Assembly (NCBI GenBank): GCA_903911135.1
Contig: CAIWCG010000124.1
Span: 1-33,679, forward strand
Length of the DNA: 33,679 bases
From: an uncultured Bacteroidota bacterium
Lineage (GTDB): Bacteria > Bacteroidota > Bacteroidia > AKYH767-A > JABDAW01
Reading direction: 5' to 3'
A model generated the notes under the pieces. That model was given only the letters and a program-made list of their open reading frames with translations, was not told the origin of the DNA and made no database searches. Shown piece by piece: positions 256 through 33,628 of this stretch; the stretch's first letter is position 1; the number at the start of each line of letters is the position of its first letter. A program made the position numbers and the translations under genes.

Positions 256-465
256 AGCCATTTATCATCTCGTAACGCCCATTTATCATCTTGTAACGAC
301 CATTTATGGTAAAGTAACACCCATTTTCCATCTTGTAACAACCATATACCATATCGTAAAGACAATTTACCATTTAGTAACGCCCCTATTCCATATCGTA
401 ACACCCATTTCCCATATAGTATCGCACATAATCCATTTTGAAACACCCATAATCCACCTTGTAAT
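256..465. repeat. Tandem array A: 10 x 21 bp, consensus about (g/a)cCCATTTaCCATcttGTAAC
   Basis: GTAAC anchors (some degenerate) end at 276, 297, 318, 339, 360, 381, 402, 423, 444, 465: exact 21-bp spacing. Confidence 0.95.
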
Positions 466-550
466 CCACTTTTCCTGATAAATCGAATGCAACAGAACCT
501 GCCATAGGCTTCAAAAAAGAATTATATCGGAAAGAAAGGGCATAAAAAAA

Positions 551-574
551 CGCCCCCTCTTTGCAGAGGGGGCG
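551..574 (-). terminator. Rho-independent terminator of the 602-4909 gene
   Basis: CGCCCCCTCT-TTGC-AGAGGGGGCG perfect 10-bp stem flanked by an A-run (U-run on minus strand). Confidence 0.85.
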
Positions 575-601
575 TTTTAAAGATTTACTCTTTACCGAGA
601 A

Positions 602-3600
602 TTACTGAACGATCAATTTTGATTGAACTTTCTGGTCTCCTTTGGTGAAGATGACGAAATAAACACCCTTTGCGATGGATGCAGTGTTGATTTCGACTTG
701 GTTGTCGCCCATTACAGAGGTACGAACTTCATTCATTATTGTTCTTCCAGTTACGTCAACCATAGACACGGTGTAGTTGGCTTCATCCAATGTGTTGAAG
801 GTAACCATTACGTGGTCTGTAGCTGGGTTTGGATAGATATTGAAAGAAGAGAATGAGTTTTCAACTTCGCTGCCTGCAATTCTGGCTGTAGTGCAGAATG
901 TCTGGATAGCAGTGAAAGCGGAAACGTTTGTACCTGTAGCATCGCAACGAGTTTGGATTTGATACTCGTAGCAAGTGTTATGCGTCAAGCCAGAGAAAGT
1001 GTAGTGAGAGTTTGGAGCGATAACGTAAGTAGTCCAAGGAAGAGTTCCTTGTTTACGGATCTGTACGTTATAACCGTTCACACAACCTGGTTGAACCCAC
1101 TGTGCATAAGCAGAGTTTGAAGTGATGTTGATGGTAGGGATGGTAGCAGGAGTTGGAGCGATGCAATCAGAACTTAATACTGTGCAAGCTACACCTGTAC
1201 AACCAGCAGTATTGGTAACGGTTACGCAATAGTTACCTGGATGGTTAGGAGTGATAACGATAGCTTGAGTAACTGCACCAGTGCTCCATAAGTAAGCAGC
1301 GTTTGAAGCAGCAGTAAGCGTTGCATTTCCAGTACCAGCGCAATAAGTCAAAAGACCTGTTGCAGTGATGTTTGAATTTGCAGCAACCAAGATGGAAGCA
1401 GAACGAGAAGCTGTTCCTGTGCAACCACATGCATTGGTAACCGTTACGGTATAGGCACCGGTAGTAGAAACTGTGTTGGCAGCAGTAGTGGCACCATTGC
1501 TCCATAAGTAAGAAACACCACCGGAAGCAGTCAATGTCAAGCTACCGCAACCGCTAGCAGGACCAGCGATGGAAGCAACAGCCTTAGGGCAGAAATTGCT
1601 TGCATTGAAGGTAGCATTACCGTTGCAACCGTTAGTGTTGGTTACTGAAACAGTATAAGAACCAGCTCCTGTGATCGTCAAGAATTGAGTAGTTTCGCCA
1701 GAAGCCCAATTATAAGAAGCATAACCTGCACCAGCATTCAATACCATGGAAGTAGCAGAACAAGAAGTTGGGATAGTTCCTGTGATATTTGGCGTGATGA
1801 AGTTGTTTACGGTGATTGTTCTGCAAGCAGAACCTGTGCAACCAAGAACGTTAGTTGCAGTTACGCAATAAGTTCCTCCAGTTGTGATAGGACCGCTGCT
1901 TTGGTTGGTAGAACCATTGCTCCAAACATAAGTGGCAGCACCACCGGCAAAACCGTCAAGAACTACAGAACCTCCTTGACAGAAAGTGGTAGGACCGTTA
2001 GCAGTGATAACAGGAATTGGAGAAATACCGATTGTTACTGATCTTGAAGCACTACCTACACAGTTACCTTGAGTAACAGTTACAGAATACATTCCTGAAG
2101 TAGAAACGTTGATAGCTTGGGTAGTTTCACCAGTGCTCCATAAGTAAGAAGCATAAGAACCAGTAGAGATAGTTACAAAACCACCAGCACAAGTGAAGGT
2201 AGTTCCTGTAATGGTTGGGTTATTGAAAGTAGTCACTGTTACTGTATGAGAAGCAACACAAGTACAACCAGAAGCATTAGAAACTGTACAATGGTATGTT
2301 CCACCAGCATTTACAGTTATTGATTGAGTTGTTGCACCATTGCTCCATGAGTATGAAGTGCCGCCATTTGCAGTTAAGGTCGCAGAAGCATTAACACCAG
2401 AACAAACACTGGTAGGACCAGTGATTGAACAAGTAGGAGCGGTATTCACAGAGATATTCTGACAAGCAACACCTGAACAACCATTTCCATCAGTAACAGT
2501 TACACAAGCAGTGGTGCTGGATGTAAATGTAGAAGAAGCACCGTTACCACCATTGCTCCAGTTATAAGAAGCAAAGTTACCAGTGCTTAAAGTAATGGAA
2601 CCATTACAAGCAGATACTGGACCAGAGATAGATGGAGTTGGATTAGTATTAACAGTGATGTTAGAAGTAGCATTTCCAGAACAACCATTTCCGTCAGTAT
2701 AAGAATAAGTATATGATGTTGATGGACCGCTATATGGATTAGCTTGATTCCAAGAACCACCTGCAGGAGAACCCATTAAAGTGATGTTTGAACCAGCACA
2801 ACCGCTAACGTCACCAGCAGTTACTGTTGGGTTTGCATTAACAGTAATATTTGAAGTAGCTTGTCCTGAACAGCCGTTGTTATCAGTATAAGAATATGTA
2901 TAAGATGTAGATGGACCGTTATAAGGATTAGCAACTGACCAAGAACCACCTGCAGGAGAACCCATCAAAGTGATATCACTACCAGCGCAACCACTAACAT
3001 CTCCAGCAGTTACTGTTGGATTGTCATAGATAGTTACATCTACACAAGCAGAACCAACACAACCATTTGCATCAGTAACGGTAACGCAGTTAGTTCCTGT
3101 AGCACATACAGTAGTTGTTTGACCGTTTGATGCATCTGACCAGCTATAAGAAGTCCAAGAACCTGCATCCAAAGTTACACATGATCCTGAGCAGGCAGTA
3201 GTAGCACCAACAATTGAAGCGGTTGGATTGCTGTTAACTATTACATCAACACATGTTGAACCAACGCAACCATTTGCATCAGTTACTGTTACACAATAGT
3301 TACCGGCAGTATAGGTAGTGATGGCATTAGTCATGTCATTAGTGCTCCAGCTATAAGCATCCCATGTACCTGCATCCAAAGTGGTAGAAGAACCATCGCA
3401 GATGGAAGTGGTTCCAGAGATAGAAGGAGTTGGATTTGCATTTACGGTAACATCCATACAGGCAGAACCTGTACATCCGTCAGGCAAAGAAACAGTTACG
3501 CAATAAGTTCCTGAAGTTGTTGCAGTAAATGATTGACCATTGCTGCCATCGCTCCAAGTATAAGAATCATAACCTGCACCAGCATCCAATATTACATTGC

Positions 3601-4909
3601 CACCATCGCAGAAGGTAGTAGCGCCACTGGCAGTTACAACTGGTGTTGGAACTGGATTAGCTACAACATCCAAGCAAGAACTTCCGATACAGCCACTAAC
3701 ACCGTCAGTAACCGTTACGCAGAACTGACCGCCACTATAAATCAAAATAGATTCGGTTGTTTCACCGCTATTCCAGCTATAAGTTGCCCATGCACCAGCA
3801 TCCAATACTACGTTTCCGCCATTACAGAATGTTGGAGGAGAACTTAAGGTGATGGCAGGATTTGGAGAAGTGTAAGAAGTTACATCTATACAAGCTACAC
3901 AAGAGCAGCCATTTGCATCAGTTACAGTGCAGCAATAAGTTCCGGTTGCAGTTGCAGTAAGAACTTGACCATTGCTACCATCACTCCAAGTATAAGAAGC
4001 AAAACCTGCTCCAGCGTCTAAATTAACTGATCCACCAGCACAGAAAGAAGTTGGGCCATCAGGAGTGATTGAACAACTGATATTGTTGCTGCCAGTTAAT
4101 GTTGTACAGGCAGTTGCAGAACAACCCAAGAATCCGTTTACACTTACACAATAAGTTCCAGCGGCAGTAACTGTAATGCTTTGAGTACTTTCACCTGTGC
4201 TCCAATGATAGTTTGTATTGTTGCTTGCAGTAAGAGTTGCAGAACCACTGTTGCAACCTATGCTGCCTGTGGTAGTAATCGACACTGATGGTCCTTGAAT
4301 AACAAATGCAAATCTATATCCCACACCAGTACATCCCCAAACGTTAGTAACTGTACAGGAGTATAAACCGGTAGTCATAGGATTGATAGTTTGGGTAGTG
4401 GCACCGGTATTCCAATGATAGGAAGAGTATCCTGTACCAGCGTTCAACGTCTGTTGTCCAGCACAAAGGCTGAAAGGACCAGAAAGACGAATACGTGGGA
4501 AAGGACGAGCGTGAACGGTAACATGGATGCAAGCGGTACCTGTACAGCCGTCTGCATCTGTTACGGTTACACAATAGTTTCCATTGAAATAAGCATTGAT
4601 CGACTGATTGTTCGATCCTGTGTTCCAATGGTAATGTGACCAGTTTCCTGCGTTCAAATTAACATGTTGCCCTGCGCAAAGGTTCGTAGAACCATTTGCA
4701 GTGATGACAATAGGTTGATTGATTGTGCAGGCAAAGGATGAAGCCATCGCTTCTCCGTTGTCAGAAGTGGAAACTACCGTAATTTCATCGGAGTTTCCTG
4801 TCGGAAGGGGTCCTTCAGTCCCATCCACAAAAGATTTTGCCGACAAAGCATTACCCAATAAGGCAAGCCCGAAGCAAAGGACAAGTGTTAGTAATTTTAA
4901 TTTGTTCAT
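602..4909 (-). CDS. Very large secreted repeat adhesin-like protein with T9SS type A C-terminal sorting domain
   Basis: N-terminal signal peptide (MNKLKLLTLVLCFGLALLGNALSA); many Cys-containing ~75-80 aa repeats (...TFCxGGxVxLDAG..SYxWSdGs..GTYCVTVTDanGC...); fibronectin III-like segment near the C-terminus; YPNPATDHVMVTF...KLIVQ ending. Confidence 0.9.
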   Translation of the reverse strand: MNKLKLLTLVLCFGLALLGNALSAKSFVDGTEGPLPTGNSDEITVVSTSDNGEAMASSFACTINQPIVITANGSTNLCAGQHVNLNAGNWSHYHWNTGSNNQSINAYFNGNYCVTVTDADGCTGTACIHVTVHARPFPRIRLSGPFSLCAGQQTLNAGTGYSSYHWNTGATTQTINPMTTGLYSCTVTNVWGCTGVGYRFAFVIQGPSVSITTTGSIGCNSGSATLTASNNTNYHWSTGESTQSITVTAAGTYCVSVNGFLGCSATACTTLTGSNNISCSITPDGPTSFCAGGSVNLDAGAGFASYTWSDGSNGQVLTATATGTYCCTVTDANGCSCVACIDVTSYTSPNPAITLSSPPTFCNGGNVVLDAGAWATYSWNSGETTESILIYSGGQFCVTVTDGVSGCIGSSCLDVVANPVPTPVVTASGATTFCDGGNVILDAGAGYDSYTWSDGSNGQSFTATTSGTYCVTVSLPDGCTGSACMDVTVNANPTPSISGTTSICDGSSTTLDAGTWDAYSWSTNDMTNAITTYTAGNYCVTVTDANGCVGSTCVDVIVNSNPTASIVGATTACSGSCVTLDAGSWTSYSWSDASNGQTTTVCATGTNCVTVTDANGCVGSACVDVTIYDNPTVTAGDVSGCAGSDITLMGSPAGGSWSVANPYNGPSTSYTYSYTDNNGCSGQATSNITVNANPTVTAGDVSGCAGSNITLMGSPAGGSWNQANPYSGPSTSYTYSYTDGNGCSGNATSNITVNTNPTPSISGPVSACNGSITLSTGNFASYNWSNGGNGASSTFTSSTTACVTVTDGNGCSGVACQNISVNTAPTCSITGPTSVCSGVNASATLTANGGTSYSWSNGATTQSITVNAGGTYHCTVSNASGCTCVASHTVTVTTFNNPTITGTTFTCAGGFVTISTGSYASYLWSTGETTQAINVSTSGMYSVTVTQGNCVGSASRSVTIGISPIPVITANGPTTFCQGGSVVLDGFAGGAATYVWSNGSTNQSSGPITTGGTYCVTATNVLGCTGSACRTITVNNFITPNITGTIPTSCSATSMVLNAGAGYASYNWASGETTQFLTITGAGSYTVSVTNTNGCNGNATFNASNFCPKAVASIAGPASGCGSLTLTASGGVSYLWSNGATTAANTVSTTGAYTVTVTNACGCTGTASRSASILVAANSNITATGLLTYCAGTGNATLTAASNAAYLWSTGAVTQAIVITPNHPGNYCVTVTNTAGCTGVACTVLSSDCIAPTPATIPTINITSNSAYAQWVQPGCVNGYNVQIRKQGTLPWTTYVIAPNSHYTFSGLTHNTCYEYQIQTRCDATGTNVSAFTAIQTFCTTARIAGSEVENSFSSFNIYPNPATDHVMVTFNTLDEANYTVSMVDVTGRTIMNEVRTSVMGDNQVEINTASIAKGVYFVIFTKGDQKVQSKLIVQ

Positions 4910-5305
4910 TTAACTATTTATTTAATTTGTGCTTACTCTATAAGGTTTTCAGCTTCCCCTTTTTTATGTGATTTACATGGTTTATCGGTTGGTTGGCTGC
5001 ATTTGCAACCGGCACTAATGAATACTGATGTTCAGGAAATGGTAAAAAAACAAAAATATCTTTCATTAACATTAACGTCGAGTTTAACGACATGAATATC
5101 TTATTTGAAACTATTCCAATACTTGAAAAATACATTAGTAAGTGAGTTGTGTTACGAGTTCGTTCTGAATTAAGGCTGCAAATAAAATAAATTTATTCAA
5201 TACTTCCAAATATTTCTGAAAAAATTACCAATCGTTAGAGAAAAGTTAATAAATGCTTAACCTAAGGGAAGCCAAAATAACCGATGAAGCGGATACTTAT
5301 TACTA

Positions 5306-6052
5306 TTACAGGTATTTATTCTGCAATCTATCGTAGGTGACGATCTTTTTCAGGTATTTTTCCCTTTGGCAATTCTTTAACGATTCAATATGCCGCAGGT
5401 GATGGCAATCGGTTCCGATGAAATCAACCAGATTTTGGTCAATCATCTTCATGGCAATCATCCTGGCGGCTGGCGAATAATAGCCAGTCAGCGAATTGGT
5501 GTTTATCTGGAGATAAACTCCCCTATCGTGAAGCTTTTTATACTCATCGAAGTCTTCATAGAAATAAGGATAGCGTTCCGGATGAGCCATAACGGCCTTT
5601 AATCCCAAAGACTGAATGGCGAATATGGCACCGTTGAGATTCTCGGGTTTATTTATGTAAGAGGTCTCGAACAAAAGATATTTGCCTCCGAAAGTAAGCA
5701 CATCAGGGCTCTTTATCTTGGCCATGAACTGCTCGTCGAGGTAATATTCTGCGGCAGCATTTATTTCCATGTCGAGGCCTTCGTTCTTTACTGCCTCTCG
5801 CACTTGCGCCAATCCCTCATTTATGTTTTGTGGGGTGTTTTTATAATAATCGCTCATGATGTGAGGTGTAGTGATGAGCTTACGGAAACCCATTCCATGC
5901 AATTCCTTGATGAGCTTGATGGAGTCTTCTATGGTTTGTGCGCCATCATCGATGCCAGGTATCAGATGCGAGTGCATATCCGTTATCACTTCAGAATAAT
6001 CTATCGACGTTTGCGGTTCTTTTTTGCCAAAAATGTTATTGAATAATCCCAT
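5306..6052 (-). CDS. CpsB/YwqE-type tyrosine-protein phosphatase (PHP family), capsule/exopolysaccharide-associated
   Basis: DMHSHLIPGIDDGAQTIEDS, TPHIM, AHPERY, IGTDCHH motifs. Confidence 0.85.
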   Translation of the reverse strand: MGLFNNIFGKKEPQTSIDYSEVITDMHSHLIPGIDDGAQTIEDSIKLIKELHGMGFRKLITTPHIMSDYYKNTPQNINEGLAQVREAVKNEGLDMEINAAAEYYLDEQFMAKIKSPDVLTFGGKYLLFETSYINKPENLNGAIFAIQSLGLKAVMAHPERYPYFYEDFDEYKKLHDRGVYLQINTNSLTGYYSPAARMIAMKMIDQNLVDFIGTDCHHLRHIESLKNCQREKYLKKIVTYDRLQNKYL

Positions 6053-6064
6053 CTTGTTAAGGTT

Positions 6065-7078
6065 TTATGATGATTGGTTGGTAAGCTGCATGTTCTTGAA
6101 CCATTCGAAAGTCAATTTAAGGCCTTCGTTCAATTTTATCTGCGGTGCGTAGCCAAGATAGGTCTTTGCCGCAGTAATGTCGGCCAATGAATCCCTTATG
6201 TCGCCTTGTCTTTCGTCTCTATATTCGGCATGGGCAGCACTTCCCGTTAAGTTTTTCAATTCATTAAAGATATCGTTGATGGAAGTGGTATCGCCTACCG
6301 CCACATTATAAATCTTTCCGATGGCATCAGGATGTTCGGCAAAAGCTGCCTTGATGTTTGCCTGAACGGCGTTCTCCACAAAGGTAAAATCCCGTGTTTG
6401 CGTGCCATCTCCGTTTATATAGGGTGATTTATTTTTCATCAAGGCCTCCATAAACAAAGGAATGACGGCTGCATAGGCTCCTTCGGGACTTTGATTGGGG
6501 CCGAAGACATTAAAATAGCGCAAGCCGATTATTTCCATGCCATAATTCATCGCAAAAACCTTGGCATACAGTTCGTTCGAATACTTGGAGACGGCATAAG
6601 GCGACAACTGATTGCCTATCTTTGATTCCACTTTTGGCATCGTCTTGTCGTCGCCATAAACAGAGGAAGAACTGGCAAAAACCACCCGCTTTACGTTGCT
6701 ATGTCTGGCTGCTTCGAGGATATTCAAGAATCCGGTGGCATTGGCTTCGTGAGTGGCAAGCGGATTCTTCAACGAACGCGGAACGGAACCCAAAGCGGCC
6801 TCATGAAAGACATAATCCATGCCTTCGCAAGCGCTCAAACAGGCAGCAAAATCGGTGATGGTATCCTTTATGAACTCAAAAGAGAGATTGTTTTTGAAAG
6901 GCATCAGATTCTTGTAATGACCGTTCGACAAATCATCCAACACACGAATCTTTCGAGCCTTGTATTTCAGCAGATATTCCACCAGATTGGAGCCAATAAA
7001 ACCTGCCCCACCTGTTATCAGGAAGGAATGGCGACTTAAATCGGTATTATGGAAAGGCGTTTCATACATCGTGGGCAA
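6065..7078 (-). CDS. NAD-dependent epimerase, WbpP/TviC-type UDP-N-acetylglucosamine 4-epimerase
   Basis: GGAGFIGSNLVEYLL, SSSSVYGD, SPYAVSKYSNELYAKVF, TRDFTFVEN motifs; SDR family. Confidence 0.8.
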   Translation of the reverse strand: MPTMYETPFHNTDLSRHSFLITGGAGFIGSNLVEYLLKYKARKIRVLDDLSNGHYKNLMPFKNNLSFEFIKDTITDFAACLSACEGMDYVFHEAALGSVPRSLKNPLATHEANATGFLNILEAARHSNVKRVVFASSSSVYGDDKTMPKVESKIGNQLSPYAVSKYSNELYAKVFAMNYGMEIIGLRYFNVFGPNQSPEGAYAAVIPLFMEALMKNKSPYINGDGTQTRDFTFVENAVQANIKAAFAEHPDAIGKIYNVAVGDTTSINDIFNELKNLTGSAAHAEYRDERQGDIRDSLADITAAKTYLGYAPQIKLNEGLKLTFEWFKNMQLTNQSS

Positions 7079-7207
7079 ATTTAGTAAATTTTAATCTTTT
7101 GAATTGACCGAACATTTCCACAATTTCTTTTCAAAACCTGACTTTTAAACCCCCGAAAAGGACCATTAAAGCCCCTTTTTAAGCTAAAACCTTCCCGAAG
7201 GTTCAGA

Positions 7208-7417
7208 AATATTTCTTTAGCCTTAATGAAATTTTCTTTAGGCTTATTGGAAAAATTCCTAACTTTATTGGAATAATTCCTAACCATAATGGAATATTTC
7301 TGAACCTTAATGGAATAATTATTAGGCTTAAAGAAATAATCCTTAAGGTTAAAGTGCAGCACTTTAACCTTAAAGAAATATTCCTTAACCTTAAAGAATA
7401 TTTTCCAGCATTAACGG
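7208..7417. repeat. Tandem array B: about 10 x 21 bp, consensus about GAATAATTCCTTAACCTTAATG
   Basis: GG/GA anchors at 7228, 7249, 7270, 7291, 7312, 7333, 7354, 7375, 7396 (21-bp steps), last step 20 bp. Confidence 0.92.
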
Positions 7418-7489
7418 AAATGGAGGGTGGATGACTTATCTTTTTTTGTCTGTATATATATAGGAGTGGGAATGCTTTTTTTGATGAGA

Positions 7490-7520
7490 CTTGGTTATTA
7501 TAAATAATTTTGTAGTTTTG
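7490..7520 (+). promoter_or_regulatory. Bacteroidota-type promoter (TTG ... TAgtTTTG)
   Basis: TTG at 7490-7492 and TAGTTTTG at 7513-7520, 20-bp spacer, 25 bp upstream of ATG 7546. Confidence 0.7.
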
Positions 7521-7545
7521 CCAGAATAAATTAAACAAAAATAAA

Positions 7546-8406: not shown

Positions 8407-8498
8407 TGCTAATTCCTGATTTCCTCCTCCTCTTATGATAGCGAGCCCTTTCTCGAGCTGCAATAGGAGGAACAGAATTAAAAATGTTATTGAAAGAA

Positions 8499-8522
8499 TT
8501 ATCTTTTATGATACATCTTTTC
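8499..8522. repeat. Direct repeat, copy of rfbB 3' end (distal)
   Basis: ttatcttttatgatacatcttttc, identical to 9043-9066. Confidence 0.9.
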
Positions 8523-8544
8523 AAAGATATCCATTCAAATTATG

Positions 8545-8829
8545 TTATTTGATATTCATCGAGGAGCGATAAACCCTAAGAACATGAATGGTATCCGTGT
8601 CGATTATCTTATAAAAGATTCTATAGTTTCCATGAACCAATTCCCTTATCGTTTCATCATTCGTTTCAGGAACCATCTTGCCGGTTTTTGGTAAATGCTC
8701 AAGAATATCCACATGAGAAATCAGCTTTAAAACAAGTCGGTTGGCGTAAAAAACAGAGTCGTAAGAAATGAATTTATGTATTTGCTTTAAGTCCTTTTTG
8801 GCAAGAGAAGTCCAGATTATTTCAACCAT
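8545..8829 (-). CDS. RelE/ParE-superfamily toxin
   Basis: 94 aa; MVEIIWTSLAKKDLKQIHKFIS...ELVHGNYRIFYKIIDTDTIHVLRVYRSS typical of ParE-like toxins. Confidence 0.85.
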   Translation of the reverse strand: MVEIIWTSLAKKDLKQIHKFISYDSVFYANRLVLKLISHVDILEHLPKTGKMVPETNDETIRELVHGNYRIFYKIIDTDTIHVLRVYRSSMNIK

Positions 8830-8996
8830 TTCTTCACTTCCTTTTTCAGGTCTTTATGAGAGGTAAGGTTCCCCTTTGCAGAATCCTTCAGGCCTTCATC
8901 AATCTTTTCAATCACTATTAATCTTTCTACCAATTCATCCAATGTAAACTCCTTTGGGAAGTCTTTTATCGCTAATGTTACCGCTTCTTTTGTCAT
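8817..8996 (-). CDS. Putative cognate antitoxin (59 aa), overlapping the toxin start by 13 nt
   Basis: Not in the supplied ORF track; translated by hand: MTKEAVTLAIKDFPKEFTLDELVERLIVIEKIDEGLKDSAKGNLTSHKDLKKEVKKWLK*. Confidence 0.75.
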   Translation of the reverse strand: MTKEAVTLAIKDFPKEFTLDELVERLIVIEKIDEGLKDSAKGNLTSHKDLKKEVKKWLK

Positions 8997-9042
8997 GTAA
9001 TTGATATTTGATTTAATGCAAAGTTAATAAAGAAAAGAATGT

Positions 9043-12476: not shown

Positions 12477-12588
12477 CCTCCCCCCCCTAATTCCTAATTT
12501 ATTATTCGTAATTATTTTTTGGAGCCTACGGTTTCTTCTCGTATCATGTCCAGTCCCGCTATCCGCTGTAGCCGCTGCCTTCCCATTA

Positions 12589-12652
12589 CCGATACAAAGC
12601 AGCGGGCTGCCGCTACTATCGGGGCTATGCTTCTATGGCAGGTTGCCTCGAA
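12589..12652 (+). repeat. Dispersed intergenic repeat R1, copy 2
   Basis: Near-identical to 1-62. Confidence 0.9.
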
Positions 12653-12674
12653 TCAGCTTTCAGTAAGCTAATGT

Positions 12675-12759: not shown

Positions 12760-12977
12760 TCACTAACCCCACGGATGTGTCCACTAATCCCACTGATGTG
12801 TCCATTAACCCCACTGATGTGTCCATTAACCCCACTGATGTGTCCATTAACCCCACTGATGTGTCCACTAACCCCACTGATGTGTCCATTAACCCCACTG
12901 ATGTGTCCACTAACCCCACTGATGTGTCCATTAACCCCACTGATGTGGGCATTAACCCCACTGATGTGGGCAATAAA
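12760..12977. repeat. Tandem array C: about 10 x 21 bp, consensus CCCACTGATGTGTCCATTAAC
   Basis: gatgtg at 12774, 12795, 12816, 12837, 12858, 12879, 12900, 12921, 12942, 12963: exact 21-bp spacing, highest unit identity in the window. Confidence 0.98.
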
Positions 12978-19585: not shown

Positions 19586-19853
19586 CTTAAAAATGCCAGT
19601 CTTATTAATGGGATTAACATTTGTTGGTCTTAAAAAGGGCATTCCCATTAATGAGTCTGGTGTTTATGGTCTTAAAAATGCCAGGTGTATTGATAGAATT
19701 GGTATTTTGCAGCTTAAAACCTTAAAAAGGTCAATCCTCTTAAGAGGATTGGTGTTTTTAAGCCACAAAAGGTCAATCGTCTTAAGAGGATTGGTGTTTT
19801 TAAGCTACAAAAGGTCAATCATCTTAAGAGGATTGGTGTTTTTAAGGTTTTTA
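19586..19853. repeat. Tandem array D: about 6 units of 42 bp (2 x 21)
   Basis: cttaa anchors 19586, 19629, 19671, 19713 (43/42/42) and ggtcaat anchors 19729, 19771, 19813 (42/42); last units contain caatcctcttaagaggattg. Confidence 0.9.
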
Positions 19854-23047: not shown

Positions 23048-23263
23048 TTATTTCAAGACTGCAAATATAATTTTATAAAATGGTTCTGCAAATGATTTTG
23101 TCAGAATTTTTATAATTTTTTCTCCTCCTCCTTATAAAACTCTCTGTTCCAAGGCATTAATTAACAATTTCGAACCCGCCCAAACCCTTGTTTTATCCTC
23201 CAAAACCGCCTCCCATTAACCCCTTCCTCACTCCTAATTCTAAATTTATGATTCCTAATTTTC

Positions 23264-23428
23264 CTTTTGGGGCGCCCCCAGCAGCAGCCTTAAGGGAAAG
23301 GGCTGCTGCAAGGGGTCGGGGTGCTACGAGGGTTCGCTACGCTCCGTTTTTGCCTCCACCACCAAAGGCCAATAGGAGGCAAAGAACAGCCTTCGGCTCC
23401 TCTCCGCTCCCTCGCCCAAGCTCCGAAC
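23264..23428 (+). repeat. Dispersed structured repeat R2, copy 1
   Basis: Shares cttttggggcgccccc-[stem]-ggtcggggtg...tcgctacgctccgtttttgcc...ccaata...ggcaaagaac...gccttcggc...ccctcgcccaagct with 30485-30650. Confidence 0.88.
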
Positions 23429-23515
23429 CACGATTGCTGCCAACACCACAGGCAGTTCTCGCAACAAATTCTCTAATCTTCGGACAACTTCAAGCTAAAT
23501 CAAGCTAAAATCACC

Positions 23516-23704
23516 CATTTCTGGTATCAAAGAAACCATTTCTTATATCTAAGAATTCATTTCTCTTATCTAAGAAACCATTTCTTACATCAAAGAATTC
23601 ATTTCTTAGGTTTAAGAAATCATTTCTCAAAGCAAAGAAAGCATTTCTCTTATAGCAGAAACCATTTCTTTTATCAAAGAAACCATTTCCTGAACCATTT
23701 TTTT
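23516..23704. repeat. Tandem array E: 9 x 21 bp, consensus about CATTTCTTATATCTAAGAAAC
   Basis: cattt anchors 23516, 23537, 23558, 23579, 23600, 23621, 23642, 23663, 23684: exact 21-bp spacing. Confidence 0.96.
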
Positions 23705-23723: not shown

Positions 23724-23915
23724 TCCATTTTTACGGTGGTCAAATTCATTTTGACGGTTGTCGAACCCAAAATGACGATGGTCAAAGTCAAAATGACCGT
23801 TGTCAAAGCCATTTTGACGAGCGTCAAAATCACTTCTACTCTTGTCAAATCCATTTTGACTACCGTCAAAATGCCGCCGACGATGGTCAAATTCCATTTA
23901 ACTGGCGTCGAAATG
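23724..23915. repeat. Tandem array F: 9 x 21 bp, consensus about GTCAAAGCCATTTTGACGANC
   Basis: gtcaaa/gtcgaa anchors 23739, 23760, 23781, 23802, 23823, 23844, 23865, 23886, 23907: exact 21-bp spacing. Confidence 0.96.
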
Positions 23916-24184: not shown

Positions 24185-24216
24185 TTTGTATAACCGAACA
24201 TTTTTGTGTAATTTTG
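24185..24216 (+). promoter_or_regulatory. Bacteroidota-type promoter (TTTG ... TAatTTTG)
   Basis: TTTG 24185-24188, 20-bp spacer, TAATTTTG 24209-24216, upstream of ATG 24267. Confidence 0.7.
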
Positions 24217-24266
24217 TGGCTCGAAAACAAAGTGACTTCCAAACTAAAAAAAACACCTCGATCATA

Positions 24267-27200: not shown

Positions 27201-29099
27201 TTTAGGATTAGTGAAGTAACATCAACTGTTACAACCACCAGTTCACCCTTTGTTATACCTGCTACTGCTGGCTTGGAGTTGAACGGTGGAATTTTATTAT
27301 CAGGAAATTATTCAATTACGAATAATGGCCTATTTAGGATGACAACTAATTCAAGTAATGATACGCTTGGCAATACTACTGGCAACTCGATTACAACTAC
27401 TGGTATCCATGGTTTTATGGATATCCAGGGAGGAAATTTAAATATAGCCTCTCAGGTAATCGTTTCAAGTGGTGCGAGATTTAGTTATGATGATGCAAAT
27501 TCCAGTTCTGGGGCATCAATAATAACAATTAATAAATTTGGCACAAACAATAATACTTCAGCCACATTTGATGTTGATGCAAATTCTTCTTTATATATTG
27601 GTAGTGGAACATTATTGTTTCATCAATGGAATACAGGGACAGCTGGCGATGTTAAATTTGGAAATGGAACTGGGACAAAAACGATTGATGTGAATTATTC
27701 TAATAAATTTCAATTCGGCGATGCAACATCACCAAATACTGGAACAAAAACATTCGTTGTTTTAGATAGCGTCGTTGATTTTAACAATATAACTTTAAAT
27801 CCTGGACTATCTGGAGATACATTAAAACTAAAATCTCCTATTAGCCTTAATGCATCTGGAATTTTAGCCCTTAACAGTGGAATTTTAAAATTGAACGGAG
27901 ATTCAATAATAATAAAGAATTCAAGTTCAACGGCCATTTCAAATAATACAACTGTACCTTTAGGTTATATTTTGGCTGAAGATTCTTTAAATCATGCAGC
28001 AGTTAAACGGTATGTCAGTCAAGGAAATATTAATTATACCTTTCCTTTTGGTAATAAACGTGGGTATTATATTCCATTTGTTTTCAATGATTCAGCAACT
28101 GCTTCACATGACTGCTGGGTAAAAGTTGCGACTTATGCTCCAAGAGATACCATAGCAAAGAAACCATATCCGTCTTGGCCAAATGCAGTAACTCATATCA
28201 GGGATTCTTCGGGTACCCACCCAACCGACAGTATCCATATTGCAGGTAGATATTGGCAAATCGACGTTACACCTGTTGTAAGTGGAAATTTTGTAAGAGG
28301 ATCAATGGTTTTTGGATATGGCTATGATGAAAGACCTATTGTTAATGAATCTTCAGGTTTAAAGGCGCAACGATGGCTTTCCTCCTATAGCAATTGGGTA
28401 GCACCTGCAAATTCAACCATATACGGATGGACGGCAAACGCAACACAAGGTGGCATTTCTACAAACAATCTAGCTACCGGATATGGAAAAGTCAGGATAT
28501 ATGGGGTAACTAATTTTTCTCCATGGGCTCTTTCTACTGTCGGTAATCCTTTGCCAATAGAACTTCTAAATTTTACTGCCAATTACAATGGGAAAAATGT
28601 TGATCTCTATTGGACAACTGAATCTGAAATAAACAATGATAAATTTACCGTTGAAAGAACCATTGACAAGGAAACCTTTGATTTTGTAGCCGAAGTTGCT
28701 GGACATGGAAATTCAAATGCTGAAAATAATTACCATGCAATAGATGAAAATCCTGTAATTGGCCTTGTGTATTATCAACTTAAACAAACCGATTTCGACG
28801 GTCATTTTACTCTTTCCGGGTTGGTACCAATAACTATTGGCAAGGATGTTTTTGAGGTGACAAAGGTTTATGGCAATAATGAAAATAATTCCATGCATGT
28901 TCAGGTTTTTGACAGTAACAATGAGGAAGTAAACATAATTGTGTACGATGTTTTGGGAAACATCATCAAACAACAAAAAGAAACTATCTACAAAGGTGGC
29001 AACGATATCACTCTCGATTTGAATTTTCTACCTAAGGGCTTGTATTTTGTTTCCGTAAGAAATGAAACAAAAATGATTACAAATAAGGTAGTCTATTAA
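24267..29099 (+). CDS. Giant secreted surface protein with T9SS type A sorting domain
   Basis: Likely start MNKNVLKVTRILALIVLCQMMW; Ser/Thr/Asn-rich repeats; LPIELLNFTANYNGKNVDLYWTTESEINNDKFTVERT domain and KGLYFVSVRNETKMITNKVVY end typical of Bacteroidota T9SS cargo. Confidence 0.88.
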   Translation: MNKNVLKVTRILALIVLCQMMWQQSNATLGSYSVSRLQIWTGNAHPANVTWQEMFNYTGHVLPTFTNSNNLDNDISTPQALPFTFNYDGINCNYFYISTNGFIVLDTLSSATLAAKQRPWYSVNANRGWSSGTATADTAYNGSNYSFYHLFSSSNYNTTFTSNNSYSARTIAPFYADLQTGRTGSTPHPLNTCITWYYSPGNIIAGDTMVVVEWRQMTFKVWTGTFRRLWFQVRLHKTSNTIEFYYQWMANQYTGNYPDYYVCGLNSATYAGSPTASNVFTQSTANTNTFSGTGTQPVRLNAHELQNYKLIFTRTGSDMGITTIYPPNTDTCAYPPITSGTYPLCTTGGLYIVDSVTNFSSSTLSFSMISQGKVYTRITDSLNGAQVWSVLDSGNIIAPIGGGQSIGVATSHAWDLSQPGKYYIKSWTTSSIVPCACTDINLNNDTSTLTIYVSKVTATSDVSTMCSGASTYLHANSVINNVGDSLFYGHITRMNYSAPGGTYTSISSWTSGDSDDGAYTVTLPFTFHFFGNARTIMNIGSNGFVEFSSYYFAPTSPSLPDNTVLGTGNDAIGLVWSDMKSNYGGSIQYTTIGSTPNREFVIKYNAVWDTTSSNAVTAYMILHETSNLIEFQNTTVPSGSYTQGIQDSLGENAFYLSSRNANTWSASNDAYLFASQPSYYWTANPTDASLTNPTSQNPQVSPTVTTTYTVTLNGGNTGYPDSIGVCPKTSSVTVTITPGLGAISPISGYNNICSYTNVLYTIPAVTNATSYIWDYSNLIDATLNYQHTDTLSLTLGTNSGWLTVKAYNSSCGIYTTVDSLYITVVPSYYGPGQWCGGVSNDWFNIYNWCSSIPSATIPAHIDGNLLPLHFPVINGTGAICQNMNLYGDNDSLTINGSYSLDVYGSWYNGLYGQTTFIANNSTINFTGNANTYEVINGVYPAVFHNITVNKGSDTTYILENVQNQTISMSGNLALTNGLFRISEVTSTVTTTSSPFVIPATAGLELNGGILLSGNYSITNNGLFRMTTNSSNDTLGNTTGNSITTTGIHGFMDIQGGNLNIASQVIVSSGARFSYDDANSSSGASIITINKFGTNNNTSATFDVDANSSLYIGSGTLLFHQWNTGTAGDVKFGNGTGTKTIDVNYSNKFQFGDATSPNTGTKTFVVLDSVVDFNNITLNPGLSGDTLKLKSPISLNASGILALNSGILKLNGDSIIIKNSSSTAISNNTTVPLGYILAEDSLNHAAVKRYVSQGNINYTFPFGNKRGYYIPFVFNDSATASHDCWVKVATYAPRDTIAKKPYPSWPNAVTHIRDSSGTHPTDSIHIAGRYWQIDVTPVVSGNFVRGSMVFGYGYDERPIVNESSGLKAQRWLSSYSNWVAPANSTIYGWTANATQGGISTNNLATGYGKVRIYGVTNFSPWALSTVGNPLPIELLNFTANYNGKNVDLYWTTESEINNDKFTVERTIDKETFDFVAEVAGHGNSNAENNYHAIDENPVIGLVYYQLKQTDFDGHFTLSGLVPITIGKDVFEVTKVYGNNENNSMHVQVFDSNNEEVNIIVYDVLGNIIKQQKETIYKGGNDITLDLNFLPKGLYFVSVRNETKMITNKVVY

Positions 29100-29126
29100 C
29101 CATTGTCAATAGATTCAATTTAAATG

Positions 29127-29155
29127 GAGCCAGGTATAATGCCTGGCTCTTTTTA
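29127..29155 (+). terminator. Rho-independent terminator of the 24267-29099 gene
   Basis: GAGCCAGG-tataatg-CCTGGCTC followed by TTTTTATTTTT. Confidence 0.85.
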
Positions 29156-29246
29156 TTTTTGGTAGGTACATCAACGATAAATGATGGTAGAGTTCATGAA
29201 TGCAAAATTTTCTTGCTATTTTTGCCACGAATAAAAATTTATCATT

Positions 29247-30401
29247 ATGCCACAATATCACTCCTTAGGGAAGTTCCCTCAAAAGCGCCACATAGTTTAT
29301 CGCAAACCCGATGGTGGCCTTTATGCCGAAGAACTGGTTTCTTCCGAAGGCTTTGCAAACATCTATTCCATCATCTATCATTGCCATCCGCCTACATTGG
29401 TGAAGCATGTGGGTGAACCTTTTTCGGTGGAGCCCAAGATTGCCTATAAAAAGAACTTGAAGAACGAAAGCTTTTTGGGCTTCAATGTCAATCCGGTCGC
29501 TGATTACCTACTAAGCAGAAAACATATTCTCGTCAACAATGATTTGAATATCTGCTTGTCGGCGCCACAACAGTCGTTGAAGGATTATTTCTACAAGAAT
29601 GCCGATTCCGACGAAGTTATCTTTGTTCATGTAGGTTCCGGAACCTTGAAATCTATATATGGAAACCTCGATTTCGGTTATGGCGACTATCTGGTCATTC
29701 CACGTGGAACCATCTACCAGATAGAATTCAAGGACGAAAACAACCGTCTGTTCATTGTTGAATCACACAGTCCCATCATTACACCGAAACGATACAGAAA
29801 CGAATATGGCCAACTGTTGGAACATTCTCCCTTCTGCGAGCGCGATATCCGCAAGCCGATGAACCTGGAGACCTACGACGAAAAAGGCGACTTCAAGGTG
29901 ATGATAAAAAAGGAAGGCATGATGCACCCCTTCATCCTCGCCACCCATCCTTTCGATGCTATTGGCTGGGACGGAAACCTCTATCCCTGGGCCTTTTCCA
30001 TTCACGATTTCGAGCCCATCACAGGCCGAGTCCATCAGCCCCCTCCTGTACACCAAACCTTCGAGGCGCACAATTTCGTCATCTGTTCCTTTGTGCCCCG
30101 TTTGTTCGATTATCATCCGCAAGCCATTCCGGCACCATATAATCACAGCAACATCGACTCCGACGAAGTTCTCTATTACGTCGATGGCGATTTCATGAGC
30201 CGCAAAAGCGTGGTGAAAGGCCAGATAACGCTCCATCCGGGTGGCATTCCACATGGGCCACACCCAGGCACAGTAGAAAAAAGCATCGGAGCCAAAGAAA
30301 CCCTCGAGCTGGCCGTAATGGTGGATACCTTCAAACCACTCTGGCTCACCGAAGACTCGCTGAAAATCAAGTCCGACGACTACTTCCTTTCCTGGCTATA
30401 A
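29247..30401 (+). CDS. hmgA: Homogentisate 1,2-dioxygenase family protein
   Basis: LGKFPQKRH...YAEELVSSEGF; PRGTIYQIEF; PPPVHQTFEAHNFVICSFVPR; LHPGGIPHGPHPG. Confidence 0.9.
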   Translation: MPQYHSLGKFPQKRHIVYRKPDGGLYAEELVSSEGFANIYSIIYHCHPPTLVKHVGEPFSVEPKIAYKKNLKNESFLGFNVNPVADYLLSRKHILVNNDLNICLSAPQQSLKDYFYKNADSDEVIFVHVGSGTLKSIYGNLDFGYGDYLVIPRGTIYQIEFKDENNRLFIVESHSPIITPKRYRNEYGQLLEHSPFCERDIRKPMNLETYDEKGDFKVMIKKEGMMHPFILATHPFDAIGWDGNLYPWAFSIHDFEPITGRVHQPPPVHQTFEAHNFVICSFVPRLFDYHPQAIPAPYNHSNIDSDEVLYYVDGDFMSRKSVVKGQITLHPGGIPHGPHPGTVEKSIGAKETLELAVMVDTFKPLWLTEDSLKIKSDDYFLSWL

Positions 30402-30421
30402 TCCAGTTTACCCCACTGAAT

Positions 30422-30460
30422 ACAGGGCAGAAGTATCCGATACTTCTGCCCTGTTCCTTT
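30422..30460 (+). terminator. Strong rho-independent terminator after hmgA
   Basis: ACAGGGCAGAAGTAT-ccg-ATACTTCTGCCCTGT perfect 15-bp stem, followed by tccttttat. Confidence 0.85.
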
Positions 30461-30484
30461 TATGCCCACCACCATTATAATTAT

Positions 30485-30650
30485 CTTTTGGGGGCGCCCC
30501 CTTTTAGCTGCCAAGGGAAAAAAGGCAGCTAAAAGAGGTCGGGGTGTTCTGTGGGGTCGCTATGCTCCGTTTTTGCCGCCATCCCCTTAAGCCAATAGGC
30601 GGCAAAGAACCGCCTTCGGCGCCACTACACTCCCTCGCCCAAGCTACGAA
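30485..30650 (+). repeat. Dispersed structured repeat R2, copy 2
   Basis: See R2 copy 1; conserved flanks, compensated stems. Confidence 0.88.
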
Positions 30651-30692
30651 ACAGCAAAACTGCAAATTTAAAAGATACTACTCGCAACAAAG

Positions 30693-30722
30693 CAAAAAAA
30701 GGCGGCACCATCTGTACCGCCT
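30693..30722. repeat. Direct repeat / terminator-like hairpin, copy 1
   Basis: caaaaaaaggcggcaccatctgtaccgcct; copy 2 at 31354-31382 with one substitution and one A length difference. Confidence 0.85.
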
Positions 30723-30832
30723 CTATGGTTAATGAAAGAATTCAAAATTCTTATTTATTAGGAACCAAGTTGCAAATTCAGTAATGTGACCGTCATATAC
30801 TGAATGTTGGGGGGTGAAAAAACTTCTAACGT

Positions 30833-31099
30833 TTATGGAAATGATTTATAAATATCTTTTCTATGGAGGACTCTTACAAATATAATACTATCCTCTTTAA
30901 CAAAAATACCTATTCTATAATCTCCGATTCTGATTCTATAGGCAGACGAATGTCCTTTTATCTTCTTTATGTTAGAAAGGTCATGAAGGCCTTTTGCGAG
31001 CTTGACTTTCGTAATGGTCTCGTCAAGAGATTTCATGAGAGATTTTTCAGTTATTTTGTCAATGTCCTTACTAAATCTATCGGTATATTCTACCTTCAT
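30833..31099 (-). CDS. RelE-type mRNA interferase toxin
   Basis: 88 aa; MKVEYTDRFSKDIDKI...LHDLSNIKKIKGHSSAYRIRIGDYRIGIFVKEDSIIFVRVLHRKDIYKSFP. Confidence 0.88.
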   Translation of the reverse strand: MKVEYTDRFSKDIDKITEKSLMKSLDETITKVKLAKGLHDLSNIKKIKGHSSAYRIRIGDYRIGIFVKEDSIIFVRVLHRKDIYKSFP

Positions 31100-31296
31100 T
31101 AAGTTCTAAGTTTTTTTAGAATAGAAGCCTCGCTTACCTTTTTAGAAAGATCAGCTTCATTCATCATCAATAACAAGGCATGATCTTCTTTCTCCTCTTC
31201 AGTAAGAATTTTTGAAGATAAGCCAAGCCTTTTAGCCAATTCCTTAAAGAGTTTCAAGTCATCTTTGTTCTCTGAATTAATAATCAATGTGCTCAT
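31099..31296 (-). CDS. Antitoxin of the RelE-type module
   Basis: 65 aa; immediately upstream and overlapping the toxin start; MSTLIINSENKDDLKLFKELAKRLGLSSKILTEEEKEDHALLLMMNEAD. Confidence 0.8.
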   Translation of the reverse strand: MSTLIINSENKDDLKLFKELAKRLGLSSKILTEEEKEDHALLLMMNEADLSKKVSEASILKKLRT

Positions 31297-31353
31297 ATCT
31301 TTTTTATTTATTTAAGCTGCAAATATACACAATGCCCACAAAAACCCCTATAA

Positions 31354-31384
31354 CAAAAAAGGCGGCACTATCTGTACCGCCTTT
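31354..31384 (-). terminator. Likely terminator of the 31405-33084 gene; copy 2 of the repeat at 30693
   Basis: AAGGCGG-cactatctgta-CCGCCTT with flanking A/T runs. Confidence 0.75.
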
Positions 31385-31404
31385 TGTAATAATCTCTTAT
31401 CCTT

Positions 31405-33084
31405 TTATTGCTTGATGAACTTGCCTCTTATGCTTTCTTTCTCGCTTTTTACTTCATAGAAATAAACGCCATTGCTCCATTTGGTAAGCTCTATGGTATT
31501 GTCTATGCCGGTGAGCGGTGCTTTATAAACCTCATGACCCAAGATATCGGTAATGATTATTTGTTCATTTGCGGAAGAAATACTTTGATGAATGGCTATG
31601 GTATTTTTCGCCGGATTAGGATAAACGATTATCTTATTCGTATTATTGATTTCGTTGATGCCTGTTGATTGTATTACATGCACCGAAATCATCGAATTGC
31701 TTGTTCGTTGCAGATAATAGCTGTTGTTGTAACTTGTAGAGCACCCGATGGCATCGGTGATGGATAGCGTGATGGTATAATTTCCGGCTGCTGCATAGGT
31801 ATGTGTAGGATAAGCAATCGTATCATGCGTGGAAGCATCTCCCCAATTCCAATCATAATGAATCGGCGCTTGACCATGACTCTGGTTCACTATCCAATAC
31901 GTATGTGCTGCCGTATCGGGATACAATAGGAAGGTGGCCGAACATACATTCGCATCGGTTATGGTGGCACTCTGGCTGGTCACGCAACTGGCAGCATCCG
32001 TTATCGTTACGGTATAATTCCCAGGCAATAATCCGGTGGCATTTTGTGAGGTGACACCATTGCTCCAATGAAAGGTATAAGGCGAAGTCCCTCCTGTTGG
32101 CGTACACGATACCCAACCATCAGCACAAGTGGAACATAAGGCCGCAGTAGGATTTAAGGTGGCACTGAAACCTACACAGCCACTGGATGAGCCAGAAAGC
32201 TCAACATAAGCCCTATACATTGCATTTTGAATAAAGCTCGAAGAATCTCGATAGTAATTTCCATCACAATTACGATACATAACCGAATCAATTCCATTTT
32301 GGTCTGGGGTTATATGCCCTACGCCTGTATTGTAATAAAATGTGTTTGGATAACAACTTGAGTGTGTTGCATAAGGAGCACCGCCCCATTGGGAACATGT
32401 TCCTGGAGAAGGAAATCCTATTACTACCCCAAAAGTATCCAATAGGTTACCATGATATTCCAAAGTAACGCAAAAACGGTTGGTAGGCAGTTGAATGTTA
32501 GGGGCAAAATGAAGATTATACAAATCTCCAACCCAACTAGATGGAGAAAGCGGTGCATTAAAAGGAATAATCAAAGTATCCGTCCAATAGATGGTGGATG
32601 TGGGATAACCGTGGCTGTTGATGCCTCCTATTTTACAAATTAAGGTATCATCATTTCCTGAATTGTTTTCCTGCCCAACTAACATAGCCAAGGAATCCAC
32701 TTTTACGGAATCATATAATGATGATGAATACCCCGTTGGCACAACATTATATGAATCAATCAAAGTATCAAACGAAACGGTGAAGAATCGATAAGATGAA
32801 TCTGCAAGGACATAATGCATATTGGCATCCCATAAAAAACTATTATAACTATTTCCAATCCAACTAAGCTGGTTCCATTTATCCGCCGAATCTATATCTA
32901 TCCAAAAAGAGATAGGGCCCGATTTCTCATGACGCGTAGATTGATGCACCGAATTATCTTTGAAGTTAGCCGGCAATGGATGGCCCTTCATCCCATTCAC
33001 AAGCATAGAGTTGGTAGAGTTTTGCGCCATGGCAACTCCACCCAGCAGCATCATGGCCGCCAATAGTGTGTAAATCTTTTTCAT
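31405..33084 (-). CDS. Secreted protein with SprB-like and PKD-like domains and T9SS type A sorting domain
   Basis: Signal MKKIYTLLAAMMLLGGVAMAQ; TGGTSPYTFHWSNGVTSQNATGLLPGNYTVTITDAASC; YPTHTYAAAGNYTITLSITDAIGC; IVYPNPAKNTIAIHQ...GVYFYEVKSEKESIRGKFIKQ. Confidence 0.9.
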   Translation of the reverse strand: MKKIYTLLAAMMLLGGVAMAQNSTNSMLVNGMKGHPLPANFKDNSVHQSTRHEKSGPISFWIDIDSADKWNQLSWIGNSYNSFLWDANMHYVLADSSYRFFTVSFDTLIDSYNVVPTGYSSSLYDSVKVDSLAMLVGQENNSGNDDTLICKIGGINSHGYPTSTIYWTDTLIIPFNAPLSPSSWVGDLYNLHFAPNIQLPTNRFCVTLEYHGNLLDTFGVVIGFPSPGTCSQWGGAPYATHSSCYPNTFYYNTGVGHITPDQNGIDSVMYRNCDGNYYRDSSSFIQNAMYRAYVELSGSSSGCVGFSATLNPTAALCSTCADGWVSCTPTGGTSPYTFHWSNGVTSQNATGLLPGNYTVTITDAASCVTSQSATITDANVCSATFLLYPDTAAHTYWIVNQSHGQAPIHYDWNWGDASTHDTIAYPTHTYAAAGNYTITLSITDAIGCSTSYNNSYYLQRTSNSMISVHVIQSTGINEINNTNKIIVYPNPAKNTIAIHQSISSANEQIIITDILGHEVYKAPLTGIDNTIELTKWSNGVYFYEVKSEKESIRGKFIKQ

Positions 33085-33375
33085 TTTATTAATTTATAGG
33101 TAATACCTTTATTCAATTTCGATGTAAAATTAACAAACTCGACAGAGAAAAACAAGGGGCAGGGCTTATTTTTAATTTTATGCTTATATATATAGTATGT
33201 TTTATGGGTAATTTTCAGGTGGGTGGGTGATGAAATTTGTCTTTTATATGGCCTTCGGATTCACGGAAACCATGCAAAAAAGTTTTTATAGGTTCAGAAG
33301 TTTCTGAAGGGATGGGAAAACTCCTTTTTAGTTTGTGGGGGGCGGAATTTATGGGGTTTTAAGGGAAAATAGTGA

Positions 33376-33628
33376 CTCATAATTGGAATTGTTACGCTCA
33401 TAAGAGGCATCGGAGCTCTCATAATTGGCATTGTTGCTCTCATAATTGACATCGGAGCGCTCATAATTGGCATCGGAGCGCTCATAATTGGTATTGTTGT
33501 ACTCATAAGAGGCATCGGTGAACTCATAATTGGTATTGTTGCTCTCATAATTGGCATCGGTGAACTCATAATTTGGCATTGTTGCTCTCATAATTGGCAT
33601 CGGTGAACTCATAATTTGGGTTTTCGTG
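33376..33628. repeat. Tandem array G: about 12 x 21 bp, consensus CTCATAATTGGCATYGKTGNN
   Basis: ctcata anchors 33376, 33397, 33418, 33439, 33460, 33481, 33502, 33523, 33544, 33565, 33587 (22-bp step, extra t), 33608. Confidence 0.96.

What the first reader, a model, noticed from the sequence alone, without database searches (positions are those of the whole stretch)
256..33628. A recurring system of intergenic tandem arrays with different sequences but one fixed 21-bp period
Seven arrays in six intergenic regions (A 256-465, B 7208-7417, C 12760-12977, D 19586-19853, E 23516-23704, F 23724-23915, G 33376-33628) have unit sequences that are unrelated or only weakly related, yet six step by 21 bp almost without exception and the seventh by 42 bp (2 x 21). 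Copy number clusters near 10 (A 10, B ~10, C ~10, E 9, F 9, G 12). Ordinary slippage-derived minisatellites would not be expected to converge on one unit length and similar copy number at independent loci. 21 bp is two turns of B-DNA (about 10.5 bp/turn), so every unit presents the same face of the helix; 21 is also 7 codons. Possible explanations: phased binding platforms for a repeat-recognising protein, arrays written by a dedicated amplification/templating enzyme that sets the unit length, or arrays of short structured RNAs. I recognise no described element with this combination.
Basis: partly seen in the sequence, partly recalled or inferred. Interest (0 to 1): 0.92.

Follow-up and report, generated by a model that had tools for sequence, protein, structure and literature searches.

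The report
Genome-wide 21-bp repeat arrays, sequence-independent
Three related lake-type Bacteroidota genomes carry several hundred short repeat arrays each between their genes; almost every array has its own sequence but all are built in steps of exactly 21 letters, and some sit behind a protein family found nowhere else, which points to an undescribed DNA-reading system.

Summary
All seven arrays are real. In 486 kb of the window's genome 75 of 77 tandem arrays have a period that is a multiple of 21, and 211 of 224 in 1.0 Mb of a second species; strong self-matching is found at lag 21 and at none of lags 19, 20, 22 or 23 in the window's genome. This suggests roughly 600-800 arrays per genome. 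They are intergenic and median 199 bp. They are absent from sampled genomes outside the genus. Units share no common motif. Between homologous arrays, indels are about 7-fold rarer relative to substitutions than in flanking repeats, so spacing is actively kept. Forty-two-bp arrays tend to be 21-bp units in alternating orientation. Arrays disperse to unrelated loci. New here: a genus-only ~313-aa protein family (10, 12 and 1 copies; 0 of 395 other Bacteroidota searched) has a 21-bp array just downstream in 20 of 23 cases (chance about 13%). Those arrays are a ~12-bp core plus ~9-bp variable spacer, spaced exactly 21; in one paralogue pair every core has switched together. Best reading: helically phased private recognition sites for a trans-acting factor. 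The factor is unproven.

The parts
258..467 (.). Array A, ~10 x 21 bp, consensus CCATTTACCATATCGTAACGC
   Evidence: related arrays at the ends of G000:C35 (77%) and C244 (75%)
7206..7421 (.). Array B, ~10 degenerate 21-bp units with a central GTTAAAGTGCAGCACTTTAAC inverted repeat; preceded by an ~80-bp leader (7124-7205) that travels with it
   Evidence: 92% copy of 7124-7425 at G000:C194, 81% at C80, relatives in G001 C86, C113, C25, C103; flanking genes not homologous
12764..12972 (.). Array C, ~10 x 21 bp, TAACCCCACTGATGTGTCCAT
   Evidence: relative in G001:C39 shares core AACCCCACTRATGT but a different 7-bp remainder
19586..19853 (.). Array D, 42-bp unit (two 21-bp halves), dyad-symmetric; 19725-19846 regular, left part degenerate
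   Evidence: dyad z 4.1
23515..23704 (.). Array E, ~9 x 21 bp, dyad unit CATTTCT-N8-AGAAAC
   Evidence: in the 85%-identical copy at G000:C238 the unit reads CATTTCCTGNGTTCAGGAAAC, both arms changed
23725..23915 (.). Array F, ~9 degenerate 21-bp units around TTTTGAC-N4-GTCAAAA
   Evidence: same dyad core in G001:C104 and C65
33376..33616 (.). Array G, ~11.5 x 21 bp, CTCATAATTGGCATCGGTGCT, with 42- and 63-bp higher-order pattern and a 1-bp insertion
12509..12663 (-). Flavo-1-type dispersed hairpin element left of array C (Rfam RF01705 match at 12548-12630)
1..62 (-). Truncated Flavo-1-type element at the contig start, left of array A
23257..23443 (.). Dispersed repeat left of E/F; also at G000 C88, C145, C175, C103 and C238
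23924..24085 (+). Dispersed repeat right of E/F (shares GCAACCTGCCATAGA with Flavo-1-type elements); C88 and C145 carry both flanks around a different 21-bp array

Best explanation
Each array is a set of private recognition sites set exactly two helical turns apart. The unit is a core of about 11-14 bp plus a spacer whose sequence is free but whose length is fixed so that the total is 21. A trans-acting factor that reads duplex DNA would bind the cores side by side on one face of the helix, in direct or inverted orientation. When the preferred sequence drifts, all cores of that array follow, so arrays end up with unrelated sequences while the spacing stays. Arrays also spread as ~200-900 bp blocks to other intergenic sites. 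Shown: period lock, indel depletion, no common motif, core/spacer structure, coordinated core change at individual loci, dispersal, restriction to the genus, linkage to a genus-only protein family. Inferred: that a factor binds, that binding is cooperative, and that the 313-aa family takes part (candidate only).
For: Period lock. Homologous arrays show 57 mismatches per gap against 8.3 in flanking repeats. No shared motif in 170 de-duplicated units. Conserved columns form a contiguous block: mean z 1.9 in 21 gene-linked arrays (p 1e-6), 0.63 in 144 others (p 2e-8). Forty-two-bp arrays: similarity to own reverse complement 0.58 against 0.47 shuffled, p 3e-10, so sites are read in both orientations, as duplex-DNA sites are. 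Genus-only protein family: 10/12/1 copies, 0 of 39 others in the order, 0 of 395 in a phylum sample; arrays downstream in nearly all copies, including 13 of 15 found only after the hypothesis was formed, against 13% of genes within 250 bp; cores spaced exactly 21 (or 42) in every such array. Paralogues L263/L265 (77% identical proteins, closely matching flank beyond the array): the ~8 cores and one inverted site all changed from TTGATACACAAA to TTAGACTCAGGA, while spacers still match unit by unit (0.48 against 0.35 shuffled, p 0.019). E versus C238: both dyad arms changed in nearly all units.
Against: Hundreds of private sequences would need hundreds of specificities; no such set of DNA-binding proteins was found. 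The linked protein has no recognisable DNA-binding fold (two coiled-coil hairpins plus a cupin-like domain), accounts for only about 23 of well over 1,000 arrays, its array sequence follows protein similarity only weakly (Mantel r 0.17, p 0.009), and its cores are only slightly enriched in other arrays (33 against 16 before self-matches are removed). The spacer test rests on one pair after choosing the best register; a second pair gave p 0.08. Gene conversion could also make contiguous conserved blocks. No expression or binding data exist.
Confidence: 0.42

Rival explanations
1. Register-locked minisatellites without function: one ancestral 21-bp array family spread as non-autonomous intergenic elements, and unequal exchange and slippage in multiples of 21 keep the period while point mutations scramble the sequence.
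For: Higher-order periods 42, 63, 84, 126; dispersed copies at non-homologous sites; small families of 2-6; an empty site in G000 (convergent genes 12 bp apart) against a 346-bp filled site in G001.
Against: Neutral indels should drift the period to 20 or 22, and lags 19, 20, 22 and 23 give 0 windows in G000. The mismatch:gap ratio is 57 against 8.3 in flanks. It does not explain the near-obligate position behind one protein family or cores changing while spacers persist.
Confidence: 0.25
2. A dedicated enzyme amplifies or rewrites local DNA in 21-nt steps, setting the unit length mechanically whatever the sequence.
For: Unit length constant while the sequence is free; coordinated change of all units, including inverted ones; genus restriction.
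Against: Whole-unit rewriting should homogenise spacers too, but gene-linked arrays have conserved cores and divergent spacers. REP-type Y1 transposases exist only as decayed or partial copies in the genus. No candidate enzyme found; reverse transcriptases and Cas1 were not searched.
Confidence: 0.15
3. The arrays act as RNA: transcribed tandem sites or hairpins (terminators, sponges, small-RNA targets) in 3' regions.
For: Location between genes, often downstream; 42-bp arrays are dyad-symmetric; gene-linked arrays often carry an inverted first unit or a terminator-like hairpin.
Against: Most 21-bp units are barely palindromic; arrays lie in divergent and convergent spacers alike; RNA function would not obviously need an exact 21-nt step.
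Confidence: 0.12
4. Translated repeat peptides (7 codons per unit).
For: Period divisible by three; indel depletion; slightly more open frames than shuffles (4.46 against 4.21 for 21-bp units, 3.65 against 3.08 for 42-bp units).
Against: No codon-position pattern in variability (mean z -0.16); arrays sit between genes in all orientations; reverse-oriented units.
Confidence: 0.03
5. Selection for intrinsically curved DNA: any 21-bp repeat adds its bend in phase.
For: Arrays are predicted to be more curved than flanks (median 1.22 against 1.12) and the effect falls at period 20 or 22.
Against: Real units are less curved than shuffled units at the same period (1.30 against 1.67) and the 10.5-bp A/T harmonic is not raised in 21-bp units. 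Wedge parameters were entered from memory.
Confidence: 0.05

Closest known systems
BrickBuilt MITE/minisatellite of Porphyromonas gingivalis (PMC4596501)
   Same: Bacteroidota; intergenic; tandem array with conserved flanking segments; dispersed and non-autonomous; species- or genus-restricted
   Different: One 23-bp sequence in 19 copies with IS5-like terminal inverted repeats; here hundreds of arrays with private sequences, a strict 21-bp step, no common terminal repeats found, and a linked protein family
Iterons and phased operator arrays (plasmid Rep sites, partition sites)
   Same: Short direct-repeat sites at about two helical turns, conserved core plus less conserved spacer, sometimes one inverted site, next to a gene (general knowledge)
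   Different: One array and one cognate protein per replicon; here well over 500 arrays per chromosome, each different; no replication or partition gene linked
REP/BIME/REPIN elements and the Flavo-1 motif (RF01705)
   Same: Dispersed intergenic repeats near gene 3' ends; Flavo-1-type elements flank about a third of sampled arrays in this genome
   Different: Arrays are not built of Flavo-1; the two congeners have arrays without this Flavo-1 version; RAYT transposases are decayed
Bacterial VNTR/minisatellite loci, including intergenic tandem repeats of lake Planctomycetota (PMC9426551)
   Same: Intergenic tandem repeats, frequent in a lake bacterium
   Different: Such loci have varied unit lengths (general knowledge); no fixed period across unrelated sequences is described in the passages read

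Membership tests
BrickBuilt-type MITE with minisatellite | Shared terminal inverted repeats | tested here: not met
   Only 8 of 153 arrays had inverted flanks within 450 bp; those examined are Flavo-1-type hairpins or a different element, not common ends
BrickBuilt-type MITE with minisatellite | One repeat sequence shared by copies | tested here: not met
   302 arrays fall in 240 similarity groups, 198 of them singletons
BrickBuilt-type MITE with minisatellite | Dispersal to unrelated intergenic sites | tested here: met
   Copies of B, E/F and the L013:8718 array have non-homologous neighbours
Ordinary slippage minisatellite | Unit length varies between loci | tested here: not met
   75/77 and 211/224 arrays are multiples of 21
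Iteron / phased operator array | Core plus spacer units at a fixed helical step | tested here: met
Iteron / phased operator array | Cognate DNA-binding protein encoded next to the array | tested here: inconclusive
   A genus-only family is next to about 20 arrays but has no known DNA-binding fold
REP/REPIN-RAYT | Intact RAYT (Y1) transposase in the genome | tested here: not met
   Only fragments with stops in G000, one 113-aa frame in G001, mostly interrupted or partial frames in G002
CRISPR array | Repeats separated by unique spacers, with cas genes | tested here: not met
   Period 21, spacers only ~9 bp and often similar; cas genes were not searched genome-wide
Coding tandem repeat | Codon-position bias of variation | tested here: not met
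   mean z -0.16

The most novel reading that the evidence does not exclude
A genus-specific DNA-reading system with hundreds of private specificities: 21-bp-phased site arrays, each read by its own drifting (perhaps nucleic-acid-guided or modular) factor, with the 313-aa coiled-coil/cupin-like family as array-bound partner.
Probability: 0.2. Interest if true: 0.95.

Novelty: categorically new. Interest (0 to 1): 0.82.

Why it matters
Hundreds of unrelated sequences held to one unit length is a pattern that standard views of bacterial minisatellites do not predict. It means something in these cells either measures or writes 21 bp. If the arrays are binding platforms, they form one of the largest sets of phased sites in a bacterial genome, with rapid co-evolution of sites that can be followed locus by locus. 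The genus-only protein behind about twenty arrays gives a concrete entry point.

Tried and rejected
Coding repeats. Common motif by EM over rotations and strands (95.7 against 84.6 +- 3.8 shuffled, weak, no usable motif). Sub-periods of 7 or 10 bases by identity (a weak 7-bp A/T harmonic is seen, unexplained). Curvature as the selected property. RAYT as mobiliser. Flavo-1 inverted pairs as the general array boundary: looked promising, but only about a third of arrays in one species have it. Positional orthology of arrays between species: synteny too poor; one shared site, one filled/empty site. Gene-linked cores as seeds of dispersed arrays: little enrichment. Pfam, NCBIfam and PDB sequence searches of the 313-aa family: nothing; PHROGs: two weak single-member hits only. 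Literature searches found no description.

Full report
What was checked. The window is a whole contig (G000:C124) of a 3.80-Mb, 296-contig Bacteroidota genome. It carries type IX secretion sorting domains, an enolase/citrate synthase operon and sugar-nucleotide genes. The seven arrays are present as described. To see whether they are special I took 486 kb of the same genome, 1.0 Mb of a second species of the genus (G001, the same assembly as public record CAIMUP01, Umea1_bin-1585), 140 kb of a third (G002) and controls.

The period lock. Counting 105-bp windows with at least 62% self-match, G000 gives 98 at lag 21, 108 at 42, 60 at 63, 68 at 84, and 0 at 19, 20, 22 and 23. G001 gives 273 at lag 21, 0 at 19, 22 and 23, and 4 at 20. 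TRF: 75/77, 211/224 and 16/23 merged arrays are multiples of 21; 0 arrays in 45 kb of the sister genus; 4 of 18 arrays in 1.34 Mb from 79 other Bacteroidota loci. If the samples are representative this means about 590 arrays in G000 and 800 in G001 (my extrapolation). Median length is 199 bp. Arrays lie in co-directional, convergent and divergent spacers (home-made gene caller), and contigs often end in them, as expected of short-read assembly.

Sequence freedom and spacing constraint. Of 302 arrays, 198 have no relative in the sample and the largest group has six. EM over all rotations and strands finds no usable common motif. Yet where homologous arrays can be aligned, there are 57 mismatches per gap opening against 8.3 in flanking repeats. 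Pairs are not independent and flank hairpins may be indel-prone, so the sevenfold difference is indicative. Neutral divergence to the point of unrelated sequence should have produced arrays of 20 or 22; none are seen in G000.

Orientation. Arrays whose true period is 42 are close to their own reverse complement (0.58 against 0.47 shuffled, p 3e-10; dyad z about 2.5). A natural reading is 21-bp units in alternating orientation. Twenty-one-bp units show this only weakly. Together with coordinated change of inverted sites this suggests double-stranded DNA as the thing read (inference).

Dispersal. B with its leader recurs at 92% and 81% in G000 and in several G001 loci, unit by unit alignable; E+F with both flanks (911 aligned columns) recurs at 85% in C238; C88 and C145 have the same two flanks around other 21-bp arrays. 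Neighbouring genes are not homologous in any of these. A convergent gene pair 12 bp apart in G000 is 346 bp apart in G001, with an array between. So arrays move or are exchanged. No transposase is implicated; Y1/RAYT genes are decayed in the genus.

Flanking hairpins. In G000 a ~150-bp Flavo-1-type element (RF01705) sits just past stop codons, mostly antisense to the gene, and the array, when present, is always on its 5' side (43 elements in 486 kb, 24 with an array within 400 bp). The other two species lack this version, so it is an associate, not the cause.

A linked protein family. Looking for expanded families near arrays, one stood out: ~313 aa, no Pfam match; it ranks first of 37 families for a downstream array (7 of 8, p 5e-6). 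A whole-genome search finds 10 copies in G000, 12 in G001, 1 in the 58%-complete G002, 0 in 39 other genomes of the order and 0 in 395 other Bacteroidota. In 19 of 23 loci TRF finds a 21-bp array right after the gene, and one more, L267, has a degenerate one that the lag measure and the site spacing recover. That is 20 of 23; L264, L273 and L277 have two units, weak or no signal. Among the 15 copies not used to form the hypothesis, 13 have it, against 13% of all genes within 250 bp. The model (pLDDT 87.6) has two long coiled-coil hairpins and a C-terminal cupin-like domain; there is no DNA-binding fold, so its role is open.

Anatomy of gene-linked arrays. Each has its own ~12-bp core, 4-8 copies in one orientation spaced 21 (now and then 42) without exception, often one or more inverted copies, and spacers of ~9 bp that differ between units. 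Core columns are contiguous more than chance. In paralogues L263 and L265 (77% identical proteins, flank beyond the array closely matching) every core is TTGATACACAAA in one and TTAGACTCAGGA in the other, the inverted site included, while spacers still correspond unit by unit (0.48 against 0.35, p 0.019 after choosing the best register). In L260/L268 the core change CTTCTCAT to CTTCACAT is seen in direct and inverted units, but the spacer test there is not significant (p 0.08). Wholesale copying of units would have homogenised spacers; parallel change of cores alone is what a drifting recognition specificity would leave. Against a simple protein-site code, array similarity follows protein similarity only weakly (r 0.17).

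Conclusion. Shown: a genus-wide class of dispersed intergenic arrays with free sequence, fixed 21-bp step, bipartite units and a linked genus-only protein family. Inferred: the step exists because sites must lie on one helical face for a trans-acting factor. I put this at 0.42, a neutral register lock at 0.25, a 21-nt writing enzyme at 0.15. None of the known element families I tested is met in all its defining features, and the literature searches found no description (the library holds open-licence papers only, so absence there is weak evidence).

Noticed in passing
window 12509-12663 (-) and 1-62 (-); many G000 loci: Flavo-1-type elements (RF01705) are strongly placed just past stop codons, antisense to the gene (27 of 30 whose nearest gene end is a stop), and any nearby array lies on their 5' side; the function of Flavo-1 is unknown and this placement could be informative.
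   Followed up: partly
L259-L281: Genus-restricted ~313-aa protein family, highly divergent paralogues (down to 16-26% identity), two coiled-coil hairpins plus cupin-like domain.
   Followed up: yes
21-bp units genome-wide: A weak excess of a 7-bp harmonic in AA/TT placement (ratio 1.32, z 4.5 in 21-bp units; 1.60, z 4.7 in 42-bp units) with no matching identity signal; unexplained.
   Followed up: partly
window 8545-8829 (-) and 30833-31099 (-): ParE-type toxin genes, each with a small ORF at its upstream end that may be the antitoxin.
   Followed up: no
window 2637-3077, inside the 602-4909 (-) adhesin-like gene: 189-bp in-frame tandem domain repeat in a secreted protein with a type IX sorting domain; 189 = 9 x 21, probably coincidence.
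   Followed up: no
window 4930-4962 (-): DUF805b cis-regulatory RNA motif (RF02914) upstream of the 602-4909 adhesin-like gene.
   Followed up: no
G001_C14:5841-6172 and G002_C4:10137-10366: An array conserved at the same gene pair in two species (76% over 231 bp) although the neighbouring proteins are only 43-56% identical.
   Followed up: no
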